A stretch of 64,000 nt of DNA from Synechococcus sp. KORDI-52 (GTDB taxonomy: Bacteria > Cyanobacteriota > Cyanobacteriia > PCC-6307 > Cyanobiaceae). The position numbers were made by a program, and so were the translations under genes. The notes beneath the pieces were generated by a model. It worked only from the letters and a program-made list of their open reading frames with translations, had not been told where the DNA came from and ran no database searches. The stretch lies in NCBI RefSeq assembly GCF_000737595.1, contig NZ_CP006271.1, positions 744,001 through 808,000 of the forward strand, given 5' to 3'. Shown one piece after another: positions 16,555 through 23,551 of this stretch (within the stretch, counting starts at the first letter, position 1; each line of letters begins with the position of its first letter).

Positions 16555-17292
16555 ATGAGCGACGCGCCCACCCCCACCGCTGAATCCGCAGAGGCCGCGG
16601 CGCCCGCCCCGCGCCTGTTGCTCGTGGACGATGAGCCGGGGCTGCGGACAGCGGTGCAGGCCTACCTGGAAGACGAAGGCTTTGATGTGTCCACCGCAGT
16701 GGACGGGGAAGAGGGTTTCAGCAAGGCCCAGCAGATGCTGCCGGATGTGGTGATCAGCGACGTGATGATGCCGCGGCTCGATGGCTATGGGCTGCTGCAG
16801 AAGCTGCGCGCCGATGAACGGCTTGGCGGTACTCCGGTGATCTTCCTCACGGCCAAGGGGATGACGGCTGACCGCACACAGGGCTATCTGGCTGGGGTGG
16901 ACGACTACATCCCCAAGCCCTTCGACCCTGATGAGTTGGTGGCGCGGGTGCGCAACGTGGCCCAGCGTCAGCAACGGCTGCTGCAGGAAGCGGCCCGCTT
17001 TGCCGACACGGATATGGGTCAGATGGCCAAGCAGATCACCGAGATCCGCTCGCTGTTGGCCCAGGCGGAAGCCCTGCCCTCCACCGAGCCCGTGGTGCAC
17101 AGCTTCACGCCGCGGGAGGCGAGTGTGCTTCAGCTGGTGGCAGAAGGCTTGATGAACAAGGAGATTGCCCGTCAGCTGGAGACCTCGATCCGCAACGTCG
17201 AGAAGTACGTGAGCCGCTTGTTCAACAAGACGGGCACCTCCAGCCGCACGGAACTGGTGCGCTATGCCCTGGAGCACCGTCTGGTGACTTGA
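16555..17292 (+). CDS. ycf29: Ycf29/Rre1-like response regulator (receiver + LuxR-type HTH)
   Basis: The product is 245 residues. A disordered Ala/Pro-rich start (1-19) precedes a receiver domain (20-135) with the acidic pair in LLLVDDEPG, phosphoacceptor Asp69 in VISDVMMPRLDGYG, and the lysine in YIPKPFDPDEL. A linker of about 45 residues leads to a LuxR/FixJ-type helix-turn-helix (about 183-245: FTPREASVLQLVAEG...NVEKYVSRLF). This architecture and the receiver sequence match Ycf29, called Rre1 in Synechocystis, a stress-responsive regulator whose usual partner is Hik2. No kinase gene is adjacent. Its stop overlaps the start of the next gene. Confidence 0.82.
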   Translation: MSDAPTPTAESAEAAAPAPRLLLVDDEPGLRTAVQAYLEDEGFDVSTAVDGEEGFSKAQQMLPDVVISDVMMPRLDGYGLLQKLRADERLGGTPVIFLTAKGMTADRTQGYLAGVDDYIPKPFDPDELVARVRNVAQRQQRLLQEAARFADTDMGQMAKQITEIRSLLAQAEALPSTEPVVHSFTPREASVLQLVAEGLMNKEIARQLETSIRNVEKYVSRLFNKTGTSSRTELVRYALEHRLVT

Positions 17293-18209
17293 AGTCTGGC
17301 TGGCGCGAGGCCGCGTTCAACGACGGCTGGACCTACCGCGACCGGGTGCCGCTGGCCGATGCCGGCCTGCTGGTGAGTGCATGGCTGGCACATCGCTACC
17401 GCCACTCCGATGCGGCGGTGTGGCGGCAGCGGATTGCGGCTGGCGAGCTGGATTGGAATGGTGAGCTTCTCAGCAGCGATCGAGCCTTGCAGGGTGGGGA
17501 CACCCTCTGCTGGCGGCGTCCCTCCTGGGTGGAGGAGGCGATCCCCGATCAGTGGCAGACCATCCACGACGACGGTGATCTGTTGGTGATCAACAAGCCC
17601 TCGGGCTTGCCGGTGATGCCCGGAGGTGGTTTTCTGCGCCACACGCTCACGGCCTTGCTCGAACCAACCGGAGCCCGGCCTGTGCACCGCCTGGGGCGCT
17701 TCACCTCCGGTTTGCAGGTGTGTGCCCGCACAGCGCACACCCGCGCCCTCTGGTCGAAGCAGTTCCGTCCGGAGGGTGGTTGCCGCAAGGTGTATCAGGC
17801 CTGGAGCCAGCGGGTGCCTGGCTTGGAGCTTGGGCAGTGCTTGAGGGTGTGCAGTGATGTGGTGGAACGGCCGCATCCGTTGTTGGGTTGGATCTGGGGG
17901 CCGGAACCGCTCGACAATGGGCCGATCCGTAAGCGGCTCTCCGCCCATTCTGTGCTGGAGTTGCTGGAGCGAACGGCAGCGGGCGATCGCCTGCAGGTGA
18001 CGATCACCACAGGGCGGCCCCATCAGATCCGCATTCATCTGGCGCAGCTCGGCAGTCCGCTGCTGGGGGATCCGCTGTATCTCCGCAATCGTGAGATTTC
18101 AGCAAGCGCAACCCCCGGGGATGGTGGCTACCGGCTGCATGCCTGGAGGCTGGATGGCGGAGAGTTTTCTCTGCAGTCTTCTTTTTCCATCGATTGGGGG
18201 ATTCTCTAG
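17289..18209 (+). CDS. RluA-family pseudouridine synthase with altered active site
   Basis: This is a 306-residue protein with an S4-like N-terminal part (about 25-80) and an RluA-type catalytic domain. Landmarks are DLLVINKPSGLPVMPGG, the active-site segment RPVHRLGRFTSGLQV, and the C-terminal TGRPHQIRIHLA...GDPLY. In RluA enzymes the active-site motif is HRLDxxTSG, whose Asp is the nucleophile; here that position is Gly. A related plastid and cyanobacterial clade appears to share HRLG, so the protein may still be functional in some form. It starts at TTG 17289, overlapping the response regulator stop by 4 bp; no earlier start fits. Confidence 0.85.
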   Translation: MKSGWREAAFNDGWTYRDRVPLADAGLLVSAWLAHRYRHSDAAVWRQRIAAGELDWNGELLSSDRALQGGDTLCWRRPSWVEEAIPDQWQTIHDDGDLLVINKPSGLPVMPGGGFLRHTLTALLEPTGARPVHRLGRFTSGLQVCARTAHTRALWSKQFRPEGGCRKVYQAWSQRVPGLELGQCLRVCSDVVERPHPLLGWIWGPEPLDNGPIRKRLSAHSVLELLERTAAGDRLQVTITTGRPHQIRIHLAQLGSPLLGDPLYLRNREISASATPGDGGYRLHAWRLDGGEFSLQSSFSIDWGIL

Positions 18210-18332: not shown

Positions 18333-21300
18333 TTGAATTTTGATGATTTAAACGAGTTAGGAATTGTTGTTTTGGCGCTGCAAGGATCTGTTTCAGGCAG
18401 TCTTTATTGGGGAGGTATGTCAGGTCAGTTGACCCTTGTCAACTCCGGTGACACCCCTCTGACGGATTGGTCCTATACCTTTCGTACTACGCAAAAAGAT
18501 GTTCAGGTTTGGTCGTCCAGCTATGACGTTGTTGATCTGGGGGATGGCACTTACGAGGTGACCGTTCGCCCCCCCGAGTGGGGTGCGTCTATTCCTGCCG
18601 GTGACTCCCTCAGCCTGAGTTTCAACGCCGTCAGCGTGGATCTGCCCACCAGCGGACCATTGACGGACGAGATGTTCTTTGCTGATGCATCTGTTGACGT
18701 CTCAGTGCCTGAAACTGAGCCGGACACGTCTCCCGACTCTCAGCCCGAACCGGACTCTGCTCACGAGCTCGAGCCCGAATCTGAACCAGCACCTGAGTCC
18801 CTGCAAGAGGTTGAAGCTCCAACCAGCGATGCACCAGCGCGCGTCTTCAAGGTGGATGTCTATTCAGGGGAGGTCAGCGACTTCCGCCCCGGCATCGACC
18901 GTCTCGACTTTGGCGGTCAGTCTGTTCACAACTTGATCCTCGGCAAAACGGAAGAGGGCTACGTCACGTTTCTCAGCCCCTGGAATGACACCCAGAAGAT
19001 GACTCTCGTGGGAGTGACCTACGACCAGCTGGCCCTTGATGATTACGGCGTTGTCGGTAACGAGCACCTGCGTCAGGACCTGGGTGGCGTTGTGTCTTGG
19101 GAGTTGGGTATTGGCCAGAAGGATCCCAACACCACTTACATCCGTTCGCACGAGTACGGCAAGGTCGAGACCATCACCGACTTTGATCCGACCACCGACA
19201 AGATCAGCTTTCTCTATTACGGCACCCGCGAGCGTCTTTCGGTGACGCAGGACGGTGCCGATTTGGTGATTTCAACCGAACCCACCGGGCAGACCTTCAT
19301 CTTCCAGAACACCAACCTGGCTGACATTCCTGGGGCCAGCCTGGAATTCCACTTCGACCAGATCGTCGAAGACAACCTCGAGATCCCCTTTGGTCGCTCG
19401 GTGGACTCGTTGACCCTCAAGGACCGCACGTCTTTGCTGACCCCTGCAGCGCCTGACGGTGAGCTGACGGATGGTTTCCAGACCCAGTCGGGCGATGCGG
19501 CGGTGAATGAGCAGCCTCCCCACGACAGCCATTCCATGGGTGACGACGGCTCCATGGACATGGATCCAGAGATGGAGATGGATGGCGAGATGGGCATGGA
19601 TTCCGGCATGGACATGCCCAGCGATTCCGAGCCATTAAGTCCTGAGCCTTTGGTTGAGACTGAACCCAGTGCTTCCGGCTTGGTGGTGTCCGCCACGATC
19701 ACTGGTGGTTGGTCGGGGACCTTCGCTGGCAATGTCACGGTGACGAACACCACCGGTGCTTCGGTCGGAACCGACTGGACGGTGAGCTTTGTCTCTGATG
19801 CACCCTTGAAGACCGTCAGTAATTTCGAGTTCACCAACACGCTCCGTGACGATGGCCGTTATGTCGTCACCTTGAGTCCCAAGTCTTGGTCAGCTCCTTT
19901 GGCCGCCGGTTCGGCCCAGAGCTCCTACTACCAGGGTTCCGGAGACTTCGTTGATCCGAATCAGGTGTTCGACCTCGGCTTCACGAGCGCCGAGGTGCCT
20001 CAGCAGCAGGCTGAGTTGGAGACTGATCCGTCTGTGATGGAGCAGCAGCCCGAAGCTCCCCAACAACCCGACTCCAGCGATGGTGTCGAGCCCTTTGATG
20101 GCGATACAACGGCCATTGAGGGCGCCACCCCGACCGAAGACACACCTGTAACGGAGAGCGGCACCGTCATCATCGACTACGAACGCCCCAATGGCACGAC
20201 TGACAAGCGGGTGGTGACCTACTTCGAGGAGTGGGGCATCTACAGCCGTGACGTGAATCTGTCGGACGTCGACGGCCAGTCGATGACCCACATGAACTAC
20301 AGCTTCTTTGATGTGAGGGCGGATGGGTCGATCACTCTGTTCGACGAATTCGCGGCCCTCCAGAAACGATTTCCTGAGGCCGATCAGGTCAGCCGCACCT
20401 TCAGCTCCAGTGAGTACGCCGCCATGGCACCGGAGCTGCTCGACATCTATGAAAATTCAGGGCGCTACACCACCAGCCAGAACGGTGATGCCATCACCGT
20501 GACGTCGGTTCCGGTGGGTTGGAACGGCGTTGGTACCAACGATGCCGGCAACTTTGAGCAGTTGCGTCGTTTCAAGGAACTCAATCCGGAGGTCAACCTC
20601 GGCTTTGCCCTAGGCGGTTGGACGCTGTCGGATGAGTTCAGCACCGCCTACGCCACCCAGGAGGGTCGCGACAAGTTCGTCAGCGAGACCGTGCGCATTT
20701 TCGAGACCTACGACTTCTTCACCGTGGTCGATTTCGACTGGGAATACCCGGGCGGCGGTGGCAAGGCGGGCAATGCAGTCTCCGCCAGCGATGGGGCGAA
20801 CTTTGAGTTGGTGTTGCGCGACCTGCGCACGGCTCTCGATGATCTCTCGGCCCGCACCGGGCGTGACTTTGAGGTGTCGGTAGCCACGGCGGGTGGCCAA
20901 GAGAAGCTGGCCAACCTCAATCTCCAAGGGATCGATCCTTACGTCGATTTCTACAACGTGATGACCTACGACTTCCACGGTGGATGGGAGAACGTCACTG
21001 GGCATCAGGCGGCCATGACCGGTGATGCCAACAACTACGACGTCACGGGAGCGGTCGACGTGTTCGAGAACGCGGGGATCGAGCTCAGCAAGGTTGTGAT
21101 GGGTGCCCCTGCCTACACCCGCGCCTGGGGGAACGTTGCTGATGGCGGAACCTTCGGCTACCAACAGCCCGGCTCCGGGCCTGATTCCACAGGGTCCTTT
21201 GAGGCGGGCATCTACGACTACAAAGATGTCCTCAACGACGTCATTACGGGGACGCGCAACCTCTACTGGGACGACGACAACAAGGCGGCGTTCCTCTACG

Positions 21301-21563
21301 ACGGAGACGAGTGGAGCTCCATGGAAACCACCGCCACCATTGCTGGCAAAGCGGCCTACGTGGAGGAGAAGGGGTTGGGCGGAATGATGTTCTGGGCCCT
21401 CAGCAACGATACTGAAGGCGAGGCCAGCCTGGTGGAGGCTGCCGATGACCTGCTGCGCAAGGGGGCGAGCTATGCCGAGGTGATCGAACGCGCCCCTGAG
21501 TTCGATGCGATTATTGGCGGCAATGGCGATTTCAGCCTGACGGATTTCACCGGCCTGGTTTGA
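18333..21563 (+). CDS. Large multidomain GH18 chitinase with two CBM2-like modules
   Basis: The 1076-residue protein reads, in order: CBM2-like module 1 (about 10-105), an acidic Pro/Glu/Ser linker (120-167), a beta-rich module (168-360, with TDFDPTTDKISFLYYGTRE), a linker holding a Met/Asp-rich stretch (402-430), CBM2-like module 2 (447-555), another acidic linker (555-610), then a GH18 barrel (625-1045). The GH18 signature is VVDFDWEYPGG: Asp800, Asp802 and catalytic Glu804 are present, but the first Asp of DxxDxDxE is Thr797. Other GH18 landmarks are NLGFALGGWT, FYNVMTYDFHG and GMMFWALSND. It should cut chitin outside the cell. There is no N-terminal signal peptide, and the acidic C-terminus (DFSLTDFTGLV) suggests type I secretion. 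The start is TTG 18333; the frame is closed upstream by a TGA. Confidence 0.93.
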   Translation: MNFDDLNELGIVVLALQGSVSGSLYWGGMSGQLTLVNSGDTPLTDWSYTFRTTQKDVQVWSSSYDVVDLGDGTYEVTVRPPEWGASIPAGDSLSLSFNAVSVDLPTSGPLTDEMFFADASVDVSVPETEPDTSPDSQPEPDSAHELEPESEPAPESLQEVEAPTSDAPARVFKVDVYSGEVSDFRPGIDRLDFGGQSVHNLILGKTEEGYVTFLSPWNDTQKMTLVGVTYDQLALDDYGVVGNEHLRQDLGGVVSWELGIGQKDPNTTYIRSHEYGKVETITDFDPTTDKISFLYYGTRERLSVTQDGADLVISTEPTGQTFIFQNTNLADIPGASLEFHFDQIVEDNLEIPFGRSVDSLTLKDRTSLLTPAAPDGELTDGFQTQSGDAAVNEQPPHDSHSMGDDGSMDMDPEMEMDGEMGMDSGMDMPSDSEPLSPEPLVETEPSASGLVVSATITGGWSGTFAGNVTVTNTTGASVGTDWTVSFVSDAPLKTVSNFEFTNTLRDDGRYVVTLSPKSWSAPLAAGSAQSSYYQGSGDFVDPNQVFDLGFTSAEVPQQQAELETDPSVMEQQPEAPQQPDSSDGVEPFDGDTTAIEGATPTEDTPVTESGTVIIDYERPNGTTDKRVVTYFEEWGIYSRDVNLSDVDGQSMTHMNYSFFDVRADGSITLFDEFAALQKRFPEADQVSRTFSSSEYAAMAPELLDIYENSGRYTTSQNGDAITVTSVPVGWNGVGTNDAGNFEQLRRFKELNPEVNLGFALGGWTLSDEFSTAYATQEGRDKFVSETVRIFETYDFFTVVDFDWEYPGGGGKAGNAVSASDGANFELVLRDLRTALDDLSARTGRDFEVSVATAGGQEKLANLNLQGIDPYVDFYNVMTYDFHGGWENVTGHQAAMTGDANNYDVTGAVDVFENAGIELSKVVMGAPAYTRAWGNVADGGTFGYQQPGSGPDSTGSFEAGIYDYKDVLNDVITGTRNLYWDDDNKAAFLYDGDEWSSMETTATIAGKAAYVEEKGLGGMMFWALSNDTEGEASLVEAADDLLRKGASYAEVIERAPEFDAIIGGNGDFSLTDFTGLV

Positions 21564-21570
21564 TCCGAAT

Positions 21571-21597
21571 CTCCCTTGAGCTGAGGGAGGGTTTTGT
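21571..21597 (+). terminator. Probable terminator after the chitinase gene
   Basis: A hairpin with stem CTCCCT (21571-21576) and AGGGAG (21584-21589) and a 7-nt loop is followed by GGTTTTGTT. It begins 8 bp after the chitinase stop codon and sits between that gene and the convergent chlM. Confidence 0.65.
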
Positions 21598-21622: not shown

Positions 21623-22336
21623 TCAGGTCTTGCGGAACTCGATCAAGCGCGAGAAGTAGAAGGGAGCTTTGTTCAGGCTGCGGCGCACCAACTTGAAGCC
21701 GCAGGCTTCCGCTGCTTTCACGATGCCGTCTTCCTTGAGCGTGTAAGCCCGGGTCGTTTTGCTGGGGCCGGGGAACAGCTGGCCGATCCCCTTCAACAGC
21801 GCCAGCAGTGGCGTGTAGGGCGCAAAACTCACGATCAGCCGTTCTTCGGTGAGGCTGCAAAGGTGCTTCACCATCTCCTCGGCCGGTTGCTGGGGGTAGT
21901 GGATGAACACGTCCAGGCAGCACACCGTGTGGAAGGAGCCGCTCAGGCTTTCCAGGTCGCTGGCGAAGAAGTTCAGCTTGGCCATGTCGAGGCCGGCCTC
22001 GCGGGCCCGGCGCTCGGCTTCCTGGGCCATGGCCTCGGAAATGTCGCTGGCGCTGATCGACCCCGCTCCCATCGCCGCCAGCGGCAGGCTCAGGCTGCCC
22101 ACTCCGCAGCCGGCGTCGCAGAAGCTCGCCTGGCTGAGTTCGCCGCTTTCCTTGATCCAAACCAGCACTTCATCCACGGTTTTCTGGTGACCGATGCGGA
22201 TGTTGCGCTGCACCTTGTTCACGTCATCGCTGTCGCTGTAGATGCGGTTCCAGCGGTCGAAACCCGTGGTTTCGAAGTAGCCCTTCACCTCCTTCTTCTC
22301 GGCCTGTTTCTGCTCTAACAGCTGATCGGGGGCCAT
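21623..22336 (-). CDS. chlM: Magnesium-protoporphyrin IX methyltransferase
   Basis: This is a 237-residue SAM-dependent methyltransferase that methylates the propionate of Mg-protoporphyrin IX, a committed step of chlorophyll synthesis. The N-terminal VKGYFETTGFDRWNRIYS is diagnostic for ChlM. The SAM site reads FCDAGCGVGSLSLPLA and the acidic strand end is SASDISEAM. The length matches cyanobacterial ChlM. It lies between the chitinase (convergent) and nagA on the same strand, 27 bp downstream of nagA. Confidence 0.96.
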   Translation of the reverse strand: MAPDQLLEQKQAEKKEVKGYFETTGFDRWNRIYSDSDDVNKVQRNIRIGHQKTVDEVLVWIKESGELSQASFCDAGCGVGSLSLPLAAMGAGSISASDISEAMAQEAERRAREAGLDMAKLNFFASDLESLSGSFHTVCCLDVFIHYPQQPAEEMVKHLCSLTEERLIVSFAPYTPLLALLKGIGQLFPGPSKTTRAYTLKEDGIVKAAEACGFKLVRRSLNKAPFYFSRLIEFRKT

Positions 22337-22363: not shown

Positions 22364-23551
22364 CTAAGCAGCGCAGGCCCAGTGCAGATCACCCTCCTTC
22401 TGGTGCCAGCGCAGCAGCTGCGTCAGTGGCCGTCCCATCAGGGCATCCATGCACCCCGTTGCATCGCCAATCACCCGCCGCGGCGCCACCGTGGCGCTCC
22501 AGATCGCAGCACTGGGGGCGTCACTCCAGCGGGCCAGCCGTTTCACCCCCTCCAGTTGCGGCAGGGTCACCCCCGCCAGGGTGCCGTCTTCGAGCCGGCA
22601 GGTGCCTTTCTCCACCAGCAGCAACCGCTCATCCCAGCGGTGCTCCCCATCGGCCAGGCCGTAGGGGGCTAGCGCATCGCTCACCAGCACCGTCTGCTCC
22701 AGCGCCAGCCGTTGCAACAGCACCGCCATCGTGGGGTGAACGTGCACGCCATCGGCAATCAGGCCTAGGGCAATGCCTCCGCGCCGGCAGGCCTCACCGA
22801 GAGGGCCTGGCGCCCGGTGGTGCAACCCCGGCATGGCATTGAAGGCGTGGGTGAGCATGGCCACCCCCTGATCGAAACCGGCGCTGGCCTGTTCGGCATT
22901 GGCGGCGCTGTGGCCGAGAGCCACGCTGATGCCCAGGTCCCGCAGCCGCCCGATCACCGCAGCGGCCCCCTCCAGTTCGGGAGCCAGGGTCACCAGGGCA
23001 ATCTCCGTTTCGAACCCACCAATGCGTTCGTTCAGGGCCTCCAGGCTGGGGCGGGCCAGGTGTTCACGGGGATGGGCACCGCGGCGGGTCTCTGCCAGAA
23101 ATGGACCCTCCAGATGGGCCCCCAGCAGCCGGCAACGGCCGCGCCGGTGTTGCTGCCGCGCCTGCCGCAGCACGTCCAGGGCTTGGCGCAGCGGCGCGAT
23201 GCCGCAGGTCACCAGGGTCGGGGCGATCGCTTCGACCCCATCGCGCCACAACAGCTCGAGGAGTTCCTCCAGCCGGGGCAAATCCATCTCGCTCAGTTCC
23301 GGGAAGGCCAGTCCCAACCCGCCGTTAATCTGCAGGTCAACACCCCGGGGGCTGAGCCAGTCGCCGTTCCAGTCCGCATAGGGTTGTTGAGCCTCTTGTT
23401 GCGCATCGGCGCCCATCGCGTCGATGCGGCAGATCAGCCCCTGCTCGTCGAGGTCGACGGAATAGCGCTGGTCTCCGTCCCCAGGCAGGGGACCCGGCAG
23501 TCGAACGTTGGTGATTCGGTGCATCAACGCAACACTGGCTTCGGCAGCCAT
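22364..23551 (-). CDS. nagA: N-acetylglucosamine-6-phosphate deacetylase
   Basis: This is an amidohydrolase-superfamily enzyme that removes acetate from GlcNAc-6-P, feeding chitin-derived or recycled aminosugar into central metabolism. The 395-residue protein has DLQINGGLGLAF, the metal-binding Glu in GAHLEGPFLA, the histidines in ALGHSAAN and LTHAFNAMPGLHHRAPG, LIADGVHVHP, and the catalytic Asp in LVSDALAPYG. The start may be ATG 23551 or ATG 23524 (MHRITNVRL), the latter closer to usual NagA starts. Its neighbours chlM and the chitinase put two aminosugar-use genes within 5.3 kb. It is divergent from purE across 11 bp. Confidence 0.93.
   Translation of the reverse strand: MAAEASVALMHRITNVRLPGPLPGDGDQRYSVDLDEQGLICRIDAMGADAQQEAQQPYADWNGDWLSPRGVDLQINGGLGLAFPELSEMDLPRLEELLELLWRDGVEAIAPTLVTCGIAPLRQALDVLRQARQQHRRGRCRLLGAHLEGPFLAETRRGAHPREHLARPSLEALNERIGGFETEIALVTLAPELEGAAAVIGRLRDLGISVALGHSAANAEQASAGFDQGVAMLTHAFNAMPGLHHRAPGPLGEACRRGGIALGLIADGVHVHPTMAVLLQRLALEQTVLVSDALAPYGLADGEHRWDERLLLVEKGTCRLEDGTLAGVTLPQLEGVKRLARWSDAPSAAIWSATVAPRRVIGDATGCMDALMGRPLTQLLRWHQKEGDLHWACAA

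What the first reader, a model, noticed from the sequence alone, without database searches (positions are those of the whole stretch)
18333..21563. Large multidomain chitinase in a picocyanobacterium, with no N-terminal signal peptide
Two CBM2-like modules, an unassigned beta-rich module and a GH18 barrel make an unusual 1076-residue enzyme for a free-living phototroph. Chitin use has been reported in some marine picocyanobacteria, so the type is known, but this domain order, the Thr in place of the first Asp of DxxDxDxE, and the lack of a Sec signal are worth attention. Type I secretion through an acidic C-terminus is a possibility.
Basis: partly seen in the sequence, partly recalled or inferred. 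Interest (0 to 1): 0.75.

Follow-up and report, generated by a model that had tools for sequence, protein, structure and literature searches.

The report
Signal-less chitinase of marine Synechococcus
This gene encodes a chitin-cutting enzyme of a known type from ocean Synechococcus, related to one already shown to be released and active, and its one unexplained part looks like a module from proteins that bacteria export without a normal signal sequence.

Summary
Window 18333-21563 (+) is an open frame with two CBM2 modules, a beta-rich module (here MOD) and a C-terminal GH18 domain, without an evident Sec signal; the start is probably the TTG at 18372 (1063 aa). It is not an oddity. By size the genome is Synechococcus KORDI-52. 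The Thr is one of the N/S/T alleles of this clade, and DxDxE is intact. New here: MOD has no Pfam or NCBIfam model, is an internal duplication, weakly resembles the C-terminal beta-roll caps of RTX enzymes, is shared with GH9 proteins, and in Ruegeria lies in a type I secretion gene cluster. That favours type I export without proving it: no RTX repeats, no HlyD gene beside the cyanobacterial loci held, and no link with canonical HlyD across the genus. chiA sits at one fixed site (rluD|chlM), scattered across the genus. New member of a known kind.

The parts
18372..21563 (+). chiA, GH18 chitinase gene, probable start TTG at 18372 (1063 aa); the open frame from 18333 is 1076 aa
18375..18662 (+). 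first CBM2 module (residues 15-110 of the 1076-aa frame; Pfam CBM_2 27-100)
18828..19517 (+). MOD (residues 166-395): beta-rich module, two similar halves with a connecting helix, no Pfam/NCBIfam model
19518..19667 (+). acidic His/Met-rich linker, part of it an 18-bp tandem repeat (19554-19616), length-variable among orthologues
19668..19967 (+). second CBM2 module (residues 446-545)
20208..21410 (+). GH18 catalytic domain (residues 626-1026)
20721..20744 (+). active-site motif TVVDFDWE (residues 797-804; D800, D802, acid E804)
21453..21560 (+). conserved C-terminal tail (residues 1041-1076), also present but internal in some relatives
21570..21590 (+). terminator-like hairpin between convergent chiA and chlM (pattern match only; 3 found in the region, 3.3 expected from shuffles)
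17289..18209 (+). left flank of the site: RNA pseudouridine synthase (RluD-like)
21623..22336 (-). right flank of the site: chlM, Mg-protoporphyrin IX methyltransferase

Best explanation
This is the KORDI-52 copy of the marine Synechococcus ChiA. It is made in the cytoplasm without a signal peptide and exported whole, most likely through a type I (ABC-HlyD-TolC) channel. Two CBM2 modules hold it on chitin, and the GH18 barrel cleaves chitin by the usual substrate-assisted mechanism (E804 as acid, D800 and D802 helping; roles recalled from GH18 knowledge). The products can then be taken up. MOD is a tandem pair of beta-roll-cap-like units that probably serves folding, stability or export outside the cell. 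Shown here: domain content, kept DxDxE, relationship, fixed locus, duplicated MOD and its spread. Published for a relative: extracellular activity. Inferred: the strain name, the export route and the role of MOD. The confidence given covers the enzyme and its signal-less export; the type I route taken alone is about even, and the first rival concerns that route only.
For: GH18 and CBM2 above curated cut-offs; chitinases at the top of Foldseek (1itx, E 2.5e-24); D800, D802, E804, M877, Y879, D880 and W1021 invariant in 8 sequences. 78% identity and the same order in G264, whose 2,366,980 bp equals WH7803 (2.36698 Mb) in a table of PMC10669429 and whose neighbour is a protein with MOD and a central CBM2, as PMC10651935 describes for WH7803_2069 (one central CBM2). 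PMC10651935: deletion of chiA abolishes endochitinase and chitobiosidase activity in spent medium. PMC4949707: chitinases of four strains are found in the exoproteome without a signal peptide. MOD and RTX enzymes: of the 11 VIA rows at Z 5.5 to 4.5, seven are MIS38 or Serratia lipases, two an alginate epimerase/lyase and two CylK (that these lipases are RTX, type-I-secreted proteins is recalled); Foldseek best E 4.6e-3, LipA. MOD proteins with RTX repeats (L104) or a serralysin C-terminal domain (L217, 22.9 bits, cut-off 20.7). In Ruegeria the MOD protein lies in a cluster annotated type I permease/ATPase, HlyD and calcium-binding protein. The own genome has a type I HlyD at 277 bits.
Against: No GGxGxD nonapeptide in the window protein. 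VIA Z is below 8 and Foldseek has no match at E 0.001 or better. The MOD halves do not match the cap at the C-terminus of the RTX-bearing L104 protein (17 and 27 of 60 shuffles as good). None of 91 other loci held has a HlyD match (E <= 1e-6), though many have short flanks and four have weak ABC-ATPase matches (L040, L041, L094, L215). A TIGR01843 match at E <= 1e-40 is found in only 8 of 34 genus genomes, in 3 of the 8 that have chiA at the chlM site, and is missing from G006 (one contig) and G030. The Ser of SxGG is Ala. The tail is internal in relatives.
Confidence: 0.8

Rival explanations
1. Same enzyme, but it leaves the cell by another route (lysis, vesicles, or an unknown non-classical exporter), and MOD is only a carbohydrate- or metal-binding or stabilising module.
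For: No HlyD match beside the gene in any cyanobacterial locus held; canonical HlyD not shared by chitinase-bearing relatives; MOD occurs with CBM2 in the cyanobacterial chitinases, GH9 proteins and small CBM2 proteins scanned; PMC4949707 only predicts a non-classical mechanism.
Against: The chitinase makes up 8.5% of the RS9917 exoproteome (PMC4949707), which is hard to square with lysis alone, though it is 0.1% in WH7803; the Ruegeria cluster and the RTX- or serralysin-tailed MOD enzymes.
Confidence: 0.35
2. The enzyme stays on the cell surface, held by MOD or its acidic linkers, and acts in attachment to chitin rather than as a free enzyme.
For: Two CBM2 modules and an RTX-cap-like module; [quoted passage not shown]
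Against: WH7803 activity is in cell-free spent medium, and chiA deletion does not change attachment (PMC10651935).
Confidence: 0.1
3. A catalytically dead chitin-binding protein, because of the T in place of the first Asp and the Ala in place of the Ser of SxGG.
For: Both changes are real.
Against: The presumed WH7803 ChiA has N and A at these positions, and WH7803 ChiA is required for activity (PMC10651935); DxDxE, MxYD and the barrel-floor Trp are kept.
Confidence: 0.04

Closest known systems
ChiA of Synechococcus WH7803 (WH7803_2068), PMC10651935
   Same: GH18 with two N-terminal CBM2 (published); in G264 (matched to WH7803 by size and neighbour) 78% identity, the same CBM2-MOD-CBM2-GH18 order and no evident signal peptide
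   Different: The first CBM2 is only 49% identical, while MOD, second CBM2 and GH18 are 83%, 86% and 91% (L157); the gene lies at another locus next to a MOD-CBM2 gene that KORDI-52 lacks; T in the window where G264 has N
Chitinases in the exoproteomes of WH7803, WH7805, RS9916 and RS9917, PMC4949707
   Same: Carbohydrate-binding half followed by a chitinase domain; no signal peptide; found outside the cell
   Different: Their sequences were not compared here beyond the presumed WH7803 one
Commonest form among the loci mapped: MOD-CBM2-CBM2, then GH18 (16 of 35 proteins, against 8 of the window's order)
   Same: Same modules; GH18 72-76% identical in the nearest ones (L077, L158-L161)
   Different: MOD stands first and is about 50% identical; on the tree it falls outside the window type's clade
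RTX-type, type-I-secreted enzymes (MIS38 lipase, Serratia LipA, serralysin, PrtC; class recalled)
   Same: No signal peptide; the first MOD half resembles their C-terminal roll/cap region, the second half that of LipA
   Different: No nonapeptides; MOD is internal, not at the C-terminus; similarity weak
GH9 (cellulase-family) proteins of larger Cyanobiaceae genomes (L214-L216)
   Same: CBM2-MOD-CBM2-catalytic domain; no evident signal peptide by eye
   Different: GH9 in place of GH18

Membership tests
GH18 chitinase | Profile match over curated cut-off | tested here: met
   PF00704, 234 bits, cut-off 29.6
GH18 chitinase | Catalytic DxDxE with acid Glu, and MxYD | tested here: met
   D800, D802, E804, M877, Y879, D880 invariant in 8 sequences
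GH18 chitinase | First Asp of DxxDxDxE and Ser of SxGG (usual positions, not the catalytic core; recalled) | tested here: not met
   T and A in the window; N/S/T and A in the clade, including the relative matched to the active WH7803 enzyme. Since an enzyme required for activity shares the variation, the filing as GH18 rests on the profile, DxDxE and fold rows
GH18 chitinase | TIM-barrel chitinase fold | tested here: met
   AF2 pLDDT 73.2, pTM 0.80; the 50 Foldseek rows shown are all GH18-type chitinases, 1itx E 2.5e-24, TM 0.61 of query
GH18 chitinase | Chitinase activity | not testable with these tools
   Published for WH7803 ChiA (PMC10651935)
Synechococcus ChiA (WH7803_2068 type) | Two CBM2 N-terminal to GH18 | tested here: met
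Synechococcus ChiA (WH7803_2068 type) | Close full-length relationship to the WH7803 gene | tested here: met
   78% over residues 19-1072 with G264; that G264 is WH7803 rests on its size and on the neighbouring gene
Synechococcus ChiA (WH7803_2068 type) | No signal peptide, yet extracellular | tested here: inconclusive
   No signal-like N-terminus by eye; location cannot be tested here
CBM2 | Profile match over curated cut-off | tested here: met
   Two matches over the cut-off, 32.3 and 28.9 bits, cut-off 24
RTX / type I secreted protein | GGxGxDxxx nonapeptide repeats | tested here: not met
   none in the window protein
RTX / type I secreted protein | Beta-roll/cap fold | tested here: inconclusive
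   Z up to 5.5, below the level of 8; Foldseek best E 4.6e-3
RTX / type I secreted protein | Uncleaved C-terminal secretion signal | not testable with these tools
   No reliable motif is known to me; the conserved tail is internal in relatives
RTX / type I secreted protein | Exporter genes alongside (usual, not universal) | tested here: not met
   No HlyD match in 91 loci held, only in Ruegeria; own flanks are rluD-like and chlM

The most novel reading that the evidence does not exclude
MOD is an undescribed export or folding module derived from RTX caps. It has lost the calcium nonapeptides, moved to an internal or N-terminal position, and is swapped between chitinases, GH9 cellulase-family proteins and CBM2 proteins of picocyanobacteria, so that signal-less polysaccharidases leave phototrophic cells through a type I channel.
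Probability: 0.35. Interest if true: 0.6.

Novelty: new member of a known kind. Interest (0 to 1): 0.35.

Why it matters
How marine Synechococcus releases large enzymes that lack signal peptides is open in what I could read: the exoproteome study says only 'non-classical'. A conserved, testable module shared by chitinases and GH9 proteins, found in Ruegeria inside a type I secretion cluster, gives that question a handle. The same-site, scattered distribution of chiA in one genus also bears on how chitin use is kept or lost in planktonic cyanobacteria.

Tried and rejected
Chitin operon: nagA (22364-23551) lies beyond chlM, but it is on the far side of chlM in 28 of 29 chlM loci whether or not chiA is present (adjacent in 26, about 1.2 kb away in L063 and L070); the 29th (L072) is cut by a contig end. 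So the neighbourhood is not evidence of a chitin cluster.

Foreign DNA by composition: the gene has 58.6% GC against 63.7% for the window. The whole-genome figure for KORDI-52 is 59.1% (PMC10669429), so the dip says nothing.

Remnants of chiA: 10 stretches were searched, 7 of them from the 18 empty sites and 3 from unclear loci (L054, L060, L073); best tblastn E 0.55, best blastn E 0.41, none convincing. The other 11 empty sites were not searched.

C-terminal type I signal: a 47-residue tail query found only itself in the own genome at E <= 10, and the tail is internal in L100, L102 and L104 (by eye).

Canonical HlyD as a correlate: TIGR01843 at E <= 1e-40 in 8 of 34 genomes. With it: G000, G007 and G033 (chitinase-bearing) and G010, G012, G013, G015, G028 (not). 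Without it though chitinase-bearing: G006, G030, G011, G018, G009, of which the last three are incomplete. No correlation. Weaker HlyD-family matches exist in the own genome and were not compared between genomes.

Viral carriers: 223 pattern matches in viral contigs, none a relative; no MOD in phages.

Other matches of MOD, all judged chance: PF20066 on L103, 22.8 bits, just under its cut-off 23.7; ribosomal protein S17 chains at E 0.0063 in a profile search of the PDB sequences.

VIA rows at Z about 3 and below include large clostridial toxin structures, mostly on the second half; at that level I take them as noise.
Full report
WHAT IS THERE. The open frame 18333-21563 (+) encodes 1076 residues. 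Pfam gives Glyco_hydro_18 at 626-1026 (E 3.4e-69) and two CBM_2 stretches; the own genome shows this one GH18 match only. The genome is 2,572,069 bp, which equals Synechococcus KORDI-52 (2.57207 Mb) in a table of PMC10669429; KORDI-49, KORDI-100 and WH7803 match G007, G006 and G264 in the same way (passages of the tables only). These names are inferred from size.

START CODON. One search sets out the codons. At the place of the window's codon 4, G030, G006 and G033 have a stop (G033 also at codon 6); G007 has one at the place of codon 1. The TTG at window position 18372 (codon 14) is present in 5 of 5 genus sequences compared and is the only such start shared by all. I take it as the likely start. 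About 13 residues then precede the Pfam CBM_2 match, with nothing like a Sec signal. This is read by eye.

RELATIVES AND DOMAIN ORDER. In the genus, 9 of 34 genomes match the protein; one of these (G005) matches only through a CBM2. Full or nearly full relatives are G030 (90%), G007 (87%), G033 (86%), G006 (83%) and G018 (73-76%, N-terminus missing at a contig end); G011 and G009 hold fragments of it. These five have CBM2-MOD-CBM2-GH18. In the family, 55 of 400 genomes match at E <= 1e-20. Of 35 proteins mapped, 8 have the window's order of MOD and CBM2 and 16 have MOD-CBM2-CBM2; GH18-first and GH9-bearing forms also occur. G264, matched to WH7803, has the window's order at 78% identity, next to a second gene with MOD and a central CBM2. 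PMC10651935 describes WH7803 ChiA with two N-terminal CBM2 and the neighbour 2069 with one central CBM2 (parts 1 and 2 of 3 read).

HOW THE ORDER MAY HAVE ARISEN. G227 has five modules, MOD-CBM2-MOD-CBM2-GH18. In a tree of 34 MODs its second MOD falls with the window type (9 rows, support 100) and its first in a 4-row clade (support 98) with MODs at the front of other chitinases (quick tree, and the tool warned of long branches meeting at the window type's clade). The first CBM2 of the window is 57% identical to that of G131 and only 49% to that of G264, although MOD, second CBM2 and GH18 of the window and G264 are 83-91% identical. So the front end seems to be exchanged as a cassette. Direction is not resolved.

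LOCUS. Of 29 chlM loci from 29 genomes, chiA lies beside chlM in 8. In 18 the RluD-like gene abuts chlM instead, 11-65 bp away in 15 and 156-292 bp in 3 (tblastn coordinates). The other 3 are a contig end or lack clear neighbours (L054, L060, L073). Seven of the 18 empty sites and these 3 were searched and hold no convincing remnant. On a tree of chlM plus nagA DNA (27 genomes; G009 and G016 were dropped as cut, G014 was left unlabelled, and G005 and G029, whose site is unclear, were counted as lacking chiA) the 7 chiA-bearing genomes need 7 changes, no fewer than shuffled labels (mean 6.3). The gene is thus scattered at one fixed site: many losses, or repeated replacement through the flanks. 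Counts cannot tell which.

ACTIVE SITE. In the cyanobacterial clade of the window the first position of DxxDxDxE is N, S or T. The GH18-first cyanobacterial enzymes L095 and L100, like the non-cyanobacterial relatives listed, have D. The Ser of SxGG is Ala in this clade; DxDxE and MxYD are kept (a pattern scan; for L104 and L036 it caught the first, different GH18 domain, and the second reads S and ALGGW). The roles of these residues are recalled knowledge of GH18. G264 has N and A, and WH7803 ChiA is required for activity, so neither change implies a dead enzyme. AF2 of residues 605-1076 reached pLDDT 73.2, pTM 0.80, and Foldseek's best matches are chitinases.

THE UNASSIGNED MODULE. MOD (166-395) has no Pfam or NCBIfam match in the window; among 15 members only scattered weak matches appeared (best E 0.0089 and 0.0077), and L103 as a whole protein has PF20066 just under its cut-off. 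AF2 gave pLDDT 86.8. The two halves align to each other by profile (probability 90, E 1.7e-6), so it is a duplication. Foldseek's first matches are LipA of Serratia and MIS38 lipase (best E 4.6e-3; none at 0.001 or better). VIA-align places the first half on the C-terminal roll/cap region of such enzymes (8ja4 Z 5.5; MIS38 lipase residues 521-615 Z 5.3, 24% identity; AlgE6 R-module 4.4, PrtC 4.1, serralysin 3.2) and the second half on LipA 521-613 (Z 4.5). These Z values alone would be unsafe. Independent signs agree: a MOD chitinase with RTX repeats (L104, PF00353), a MOD GH9 protein ending in Peptidase_M10_C (L217, just over cut-off), half-modules at the C-terminus of L100 and in Rhizobiales chitinases, and a Ruegeria plasmid protein with MOD (53% identity over 92%) in a cluster annotated type I permease/ATPase, HlyD, calcium-binding protein. 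Against: no nonapeptides in the window protein, no HlyD match in any of 91 other loci held (overlapping loci and short flanks included; weak ABC-ATPase matches in four), no link with canonical HlyD, and one negative half-module test.

SPREAD OF MOD. 42 of 400 family genomes have it, all 42 among the 55 that match the chitinase query, which itself contains MOD. Of 386 genomes drawn from the phylum 16 match: 13 in the family, two in another family and one partial, weak match. Of the two, one was read and is CBM2-MOD-CBM2 followed by a GH9-like stretch (by eye). Three family members have CBM2-MOD-CBM2-GH9, and two more GH9 proteins have MOD after the GH9 domain. Outside cyanobacteria it was seen in two Rhizobiales contigs (37% identity) and in one plasmid record, Ruegeria.

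LITERATURE. PMC4949707 (section 10 and passages) reports signal-less chitinases in four exoproteomes. PMC10651935 shows the need for ChiA. PMC12329445, PMC11319675 and PMC3034196 were seen as passages. The PNAS paper on chitin use in picocyanobacteria (PMC10194020) is not held, so it may already show KORDI-52 or MOD. The searches (chitinase or chitin with type I secretion and cyanobacteria or Synechococcus) listed 6 and 8 papers; in titles, starts of abstracts and the passages seen, none ties this chitinase to a type I exporter, but most of those papers were not opened.

VERDICT. An ordinary member of a known enzyme group, with one useful new lead: the nature of MOD.

Noticed in passing
window 19518-19667 and the same place after MOD in relatives: A His/Met-rich acidic linker follows MOD: at least 2 His in the next 75 residues in 25 of 25 MODs outside one clade of the tree; in that clade of 9 it is 0-1 His, with Met-rich stretches instead. 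HxH occurs in 16 of 34, not in the window. Possibly metal binding.
   Followed up: partly
window 22364-23551 (-): A NagA-like gene (TIGR00221, 200 bits, under the cut-off of 225.65) on the far side of chlM in 28 of 29 genus loci, with or without chiA.
   Followed up: yes
L036 7697-13270 (G018; same protein as L104, single-cell genome AG-670-F04): A protein of 1858 codons with MOD, CBM2, RTX repeats and two GH18 domains, one of another GH18 type.
   Followed up: partly
G106:C1:939704-942374: A chitinase-like stretch with several in-frame stops (2 TGA, 1 TAG, 1 TAA in the GH18 part): apparently a decayed copy.
   Followed up: no
L037 12921-15893 (G033): A second chitinase type in a genome that also has the window type: 991 codons, CBM2-CBM2-split GH18 match, no MOD match.
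   Followed up: no
L200 2761-13226 (own genome C1:1366760-1377225): A type-I-like gene group: HlyD over cut-off (277 bits), a 716-aa protein that looks like an ABC transporter by eye and a 2200-aa protein; the only TIGR01843 match over cut-off among 34 genus genomes.
   Followed up: partly
L225 6447-9041 (Ruegeria plasmid NZ_CP065362.1): A MOD protein annotated hypothetical, without Pfam match, with a further half-module-like stretch near its C-terminus (by eye), inside a type I secretion cluster.
   Followed up: partly
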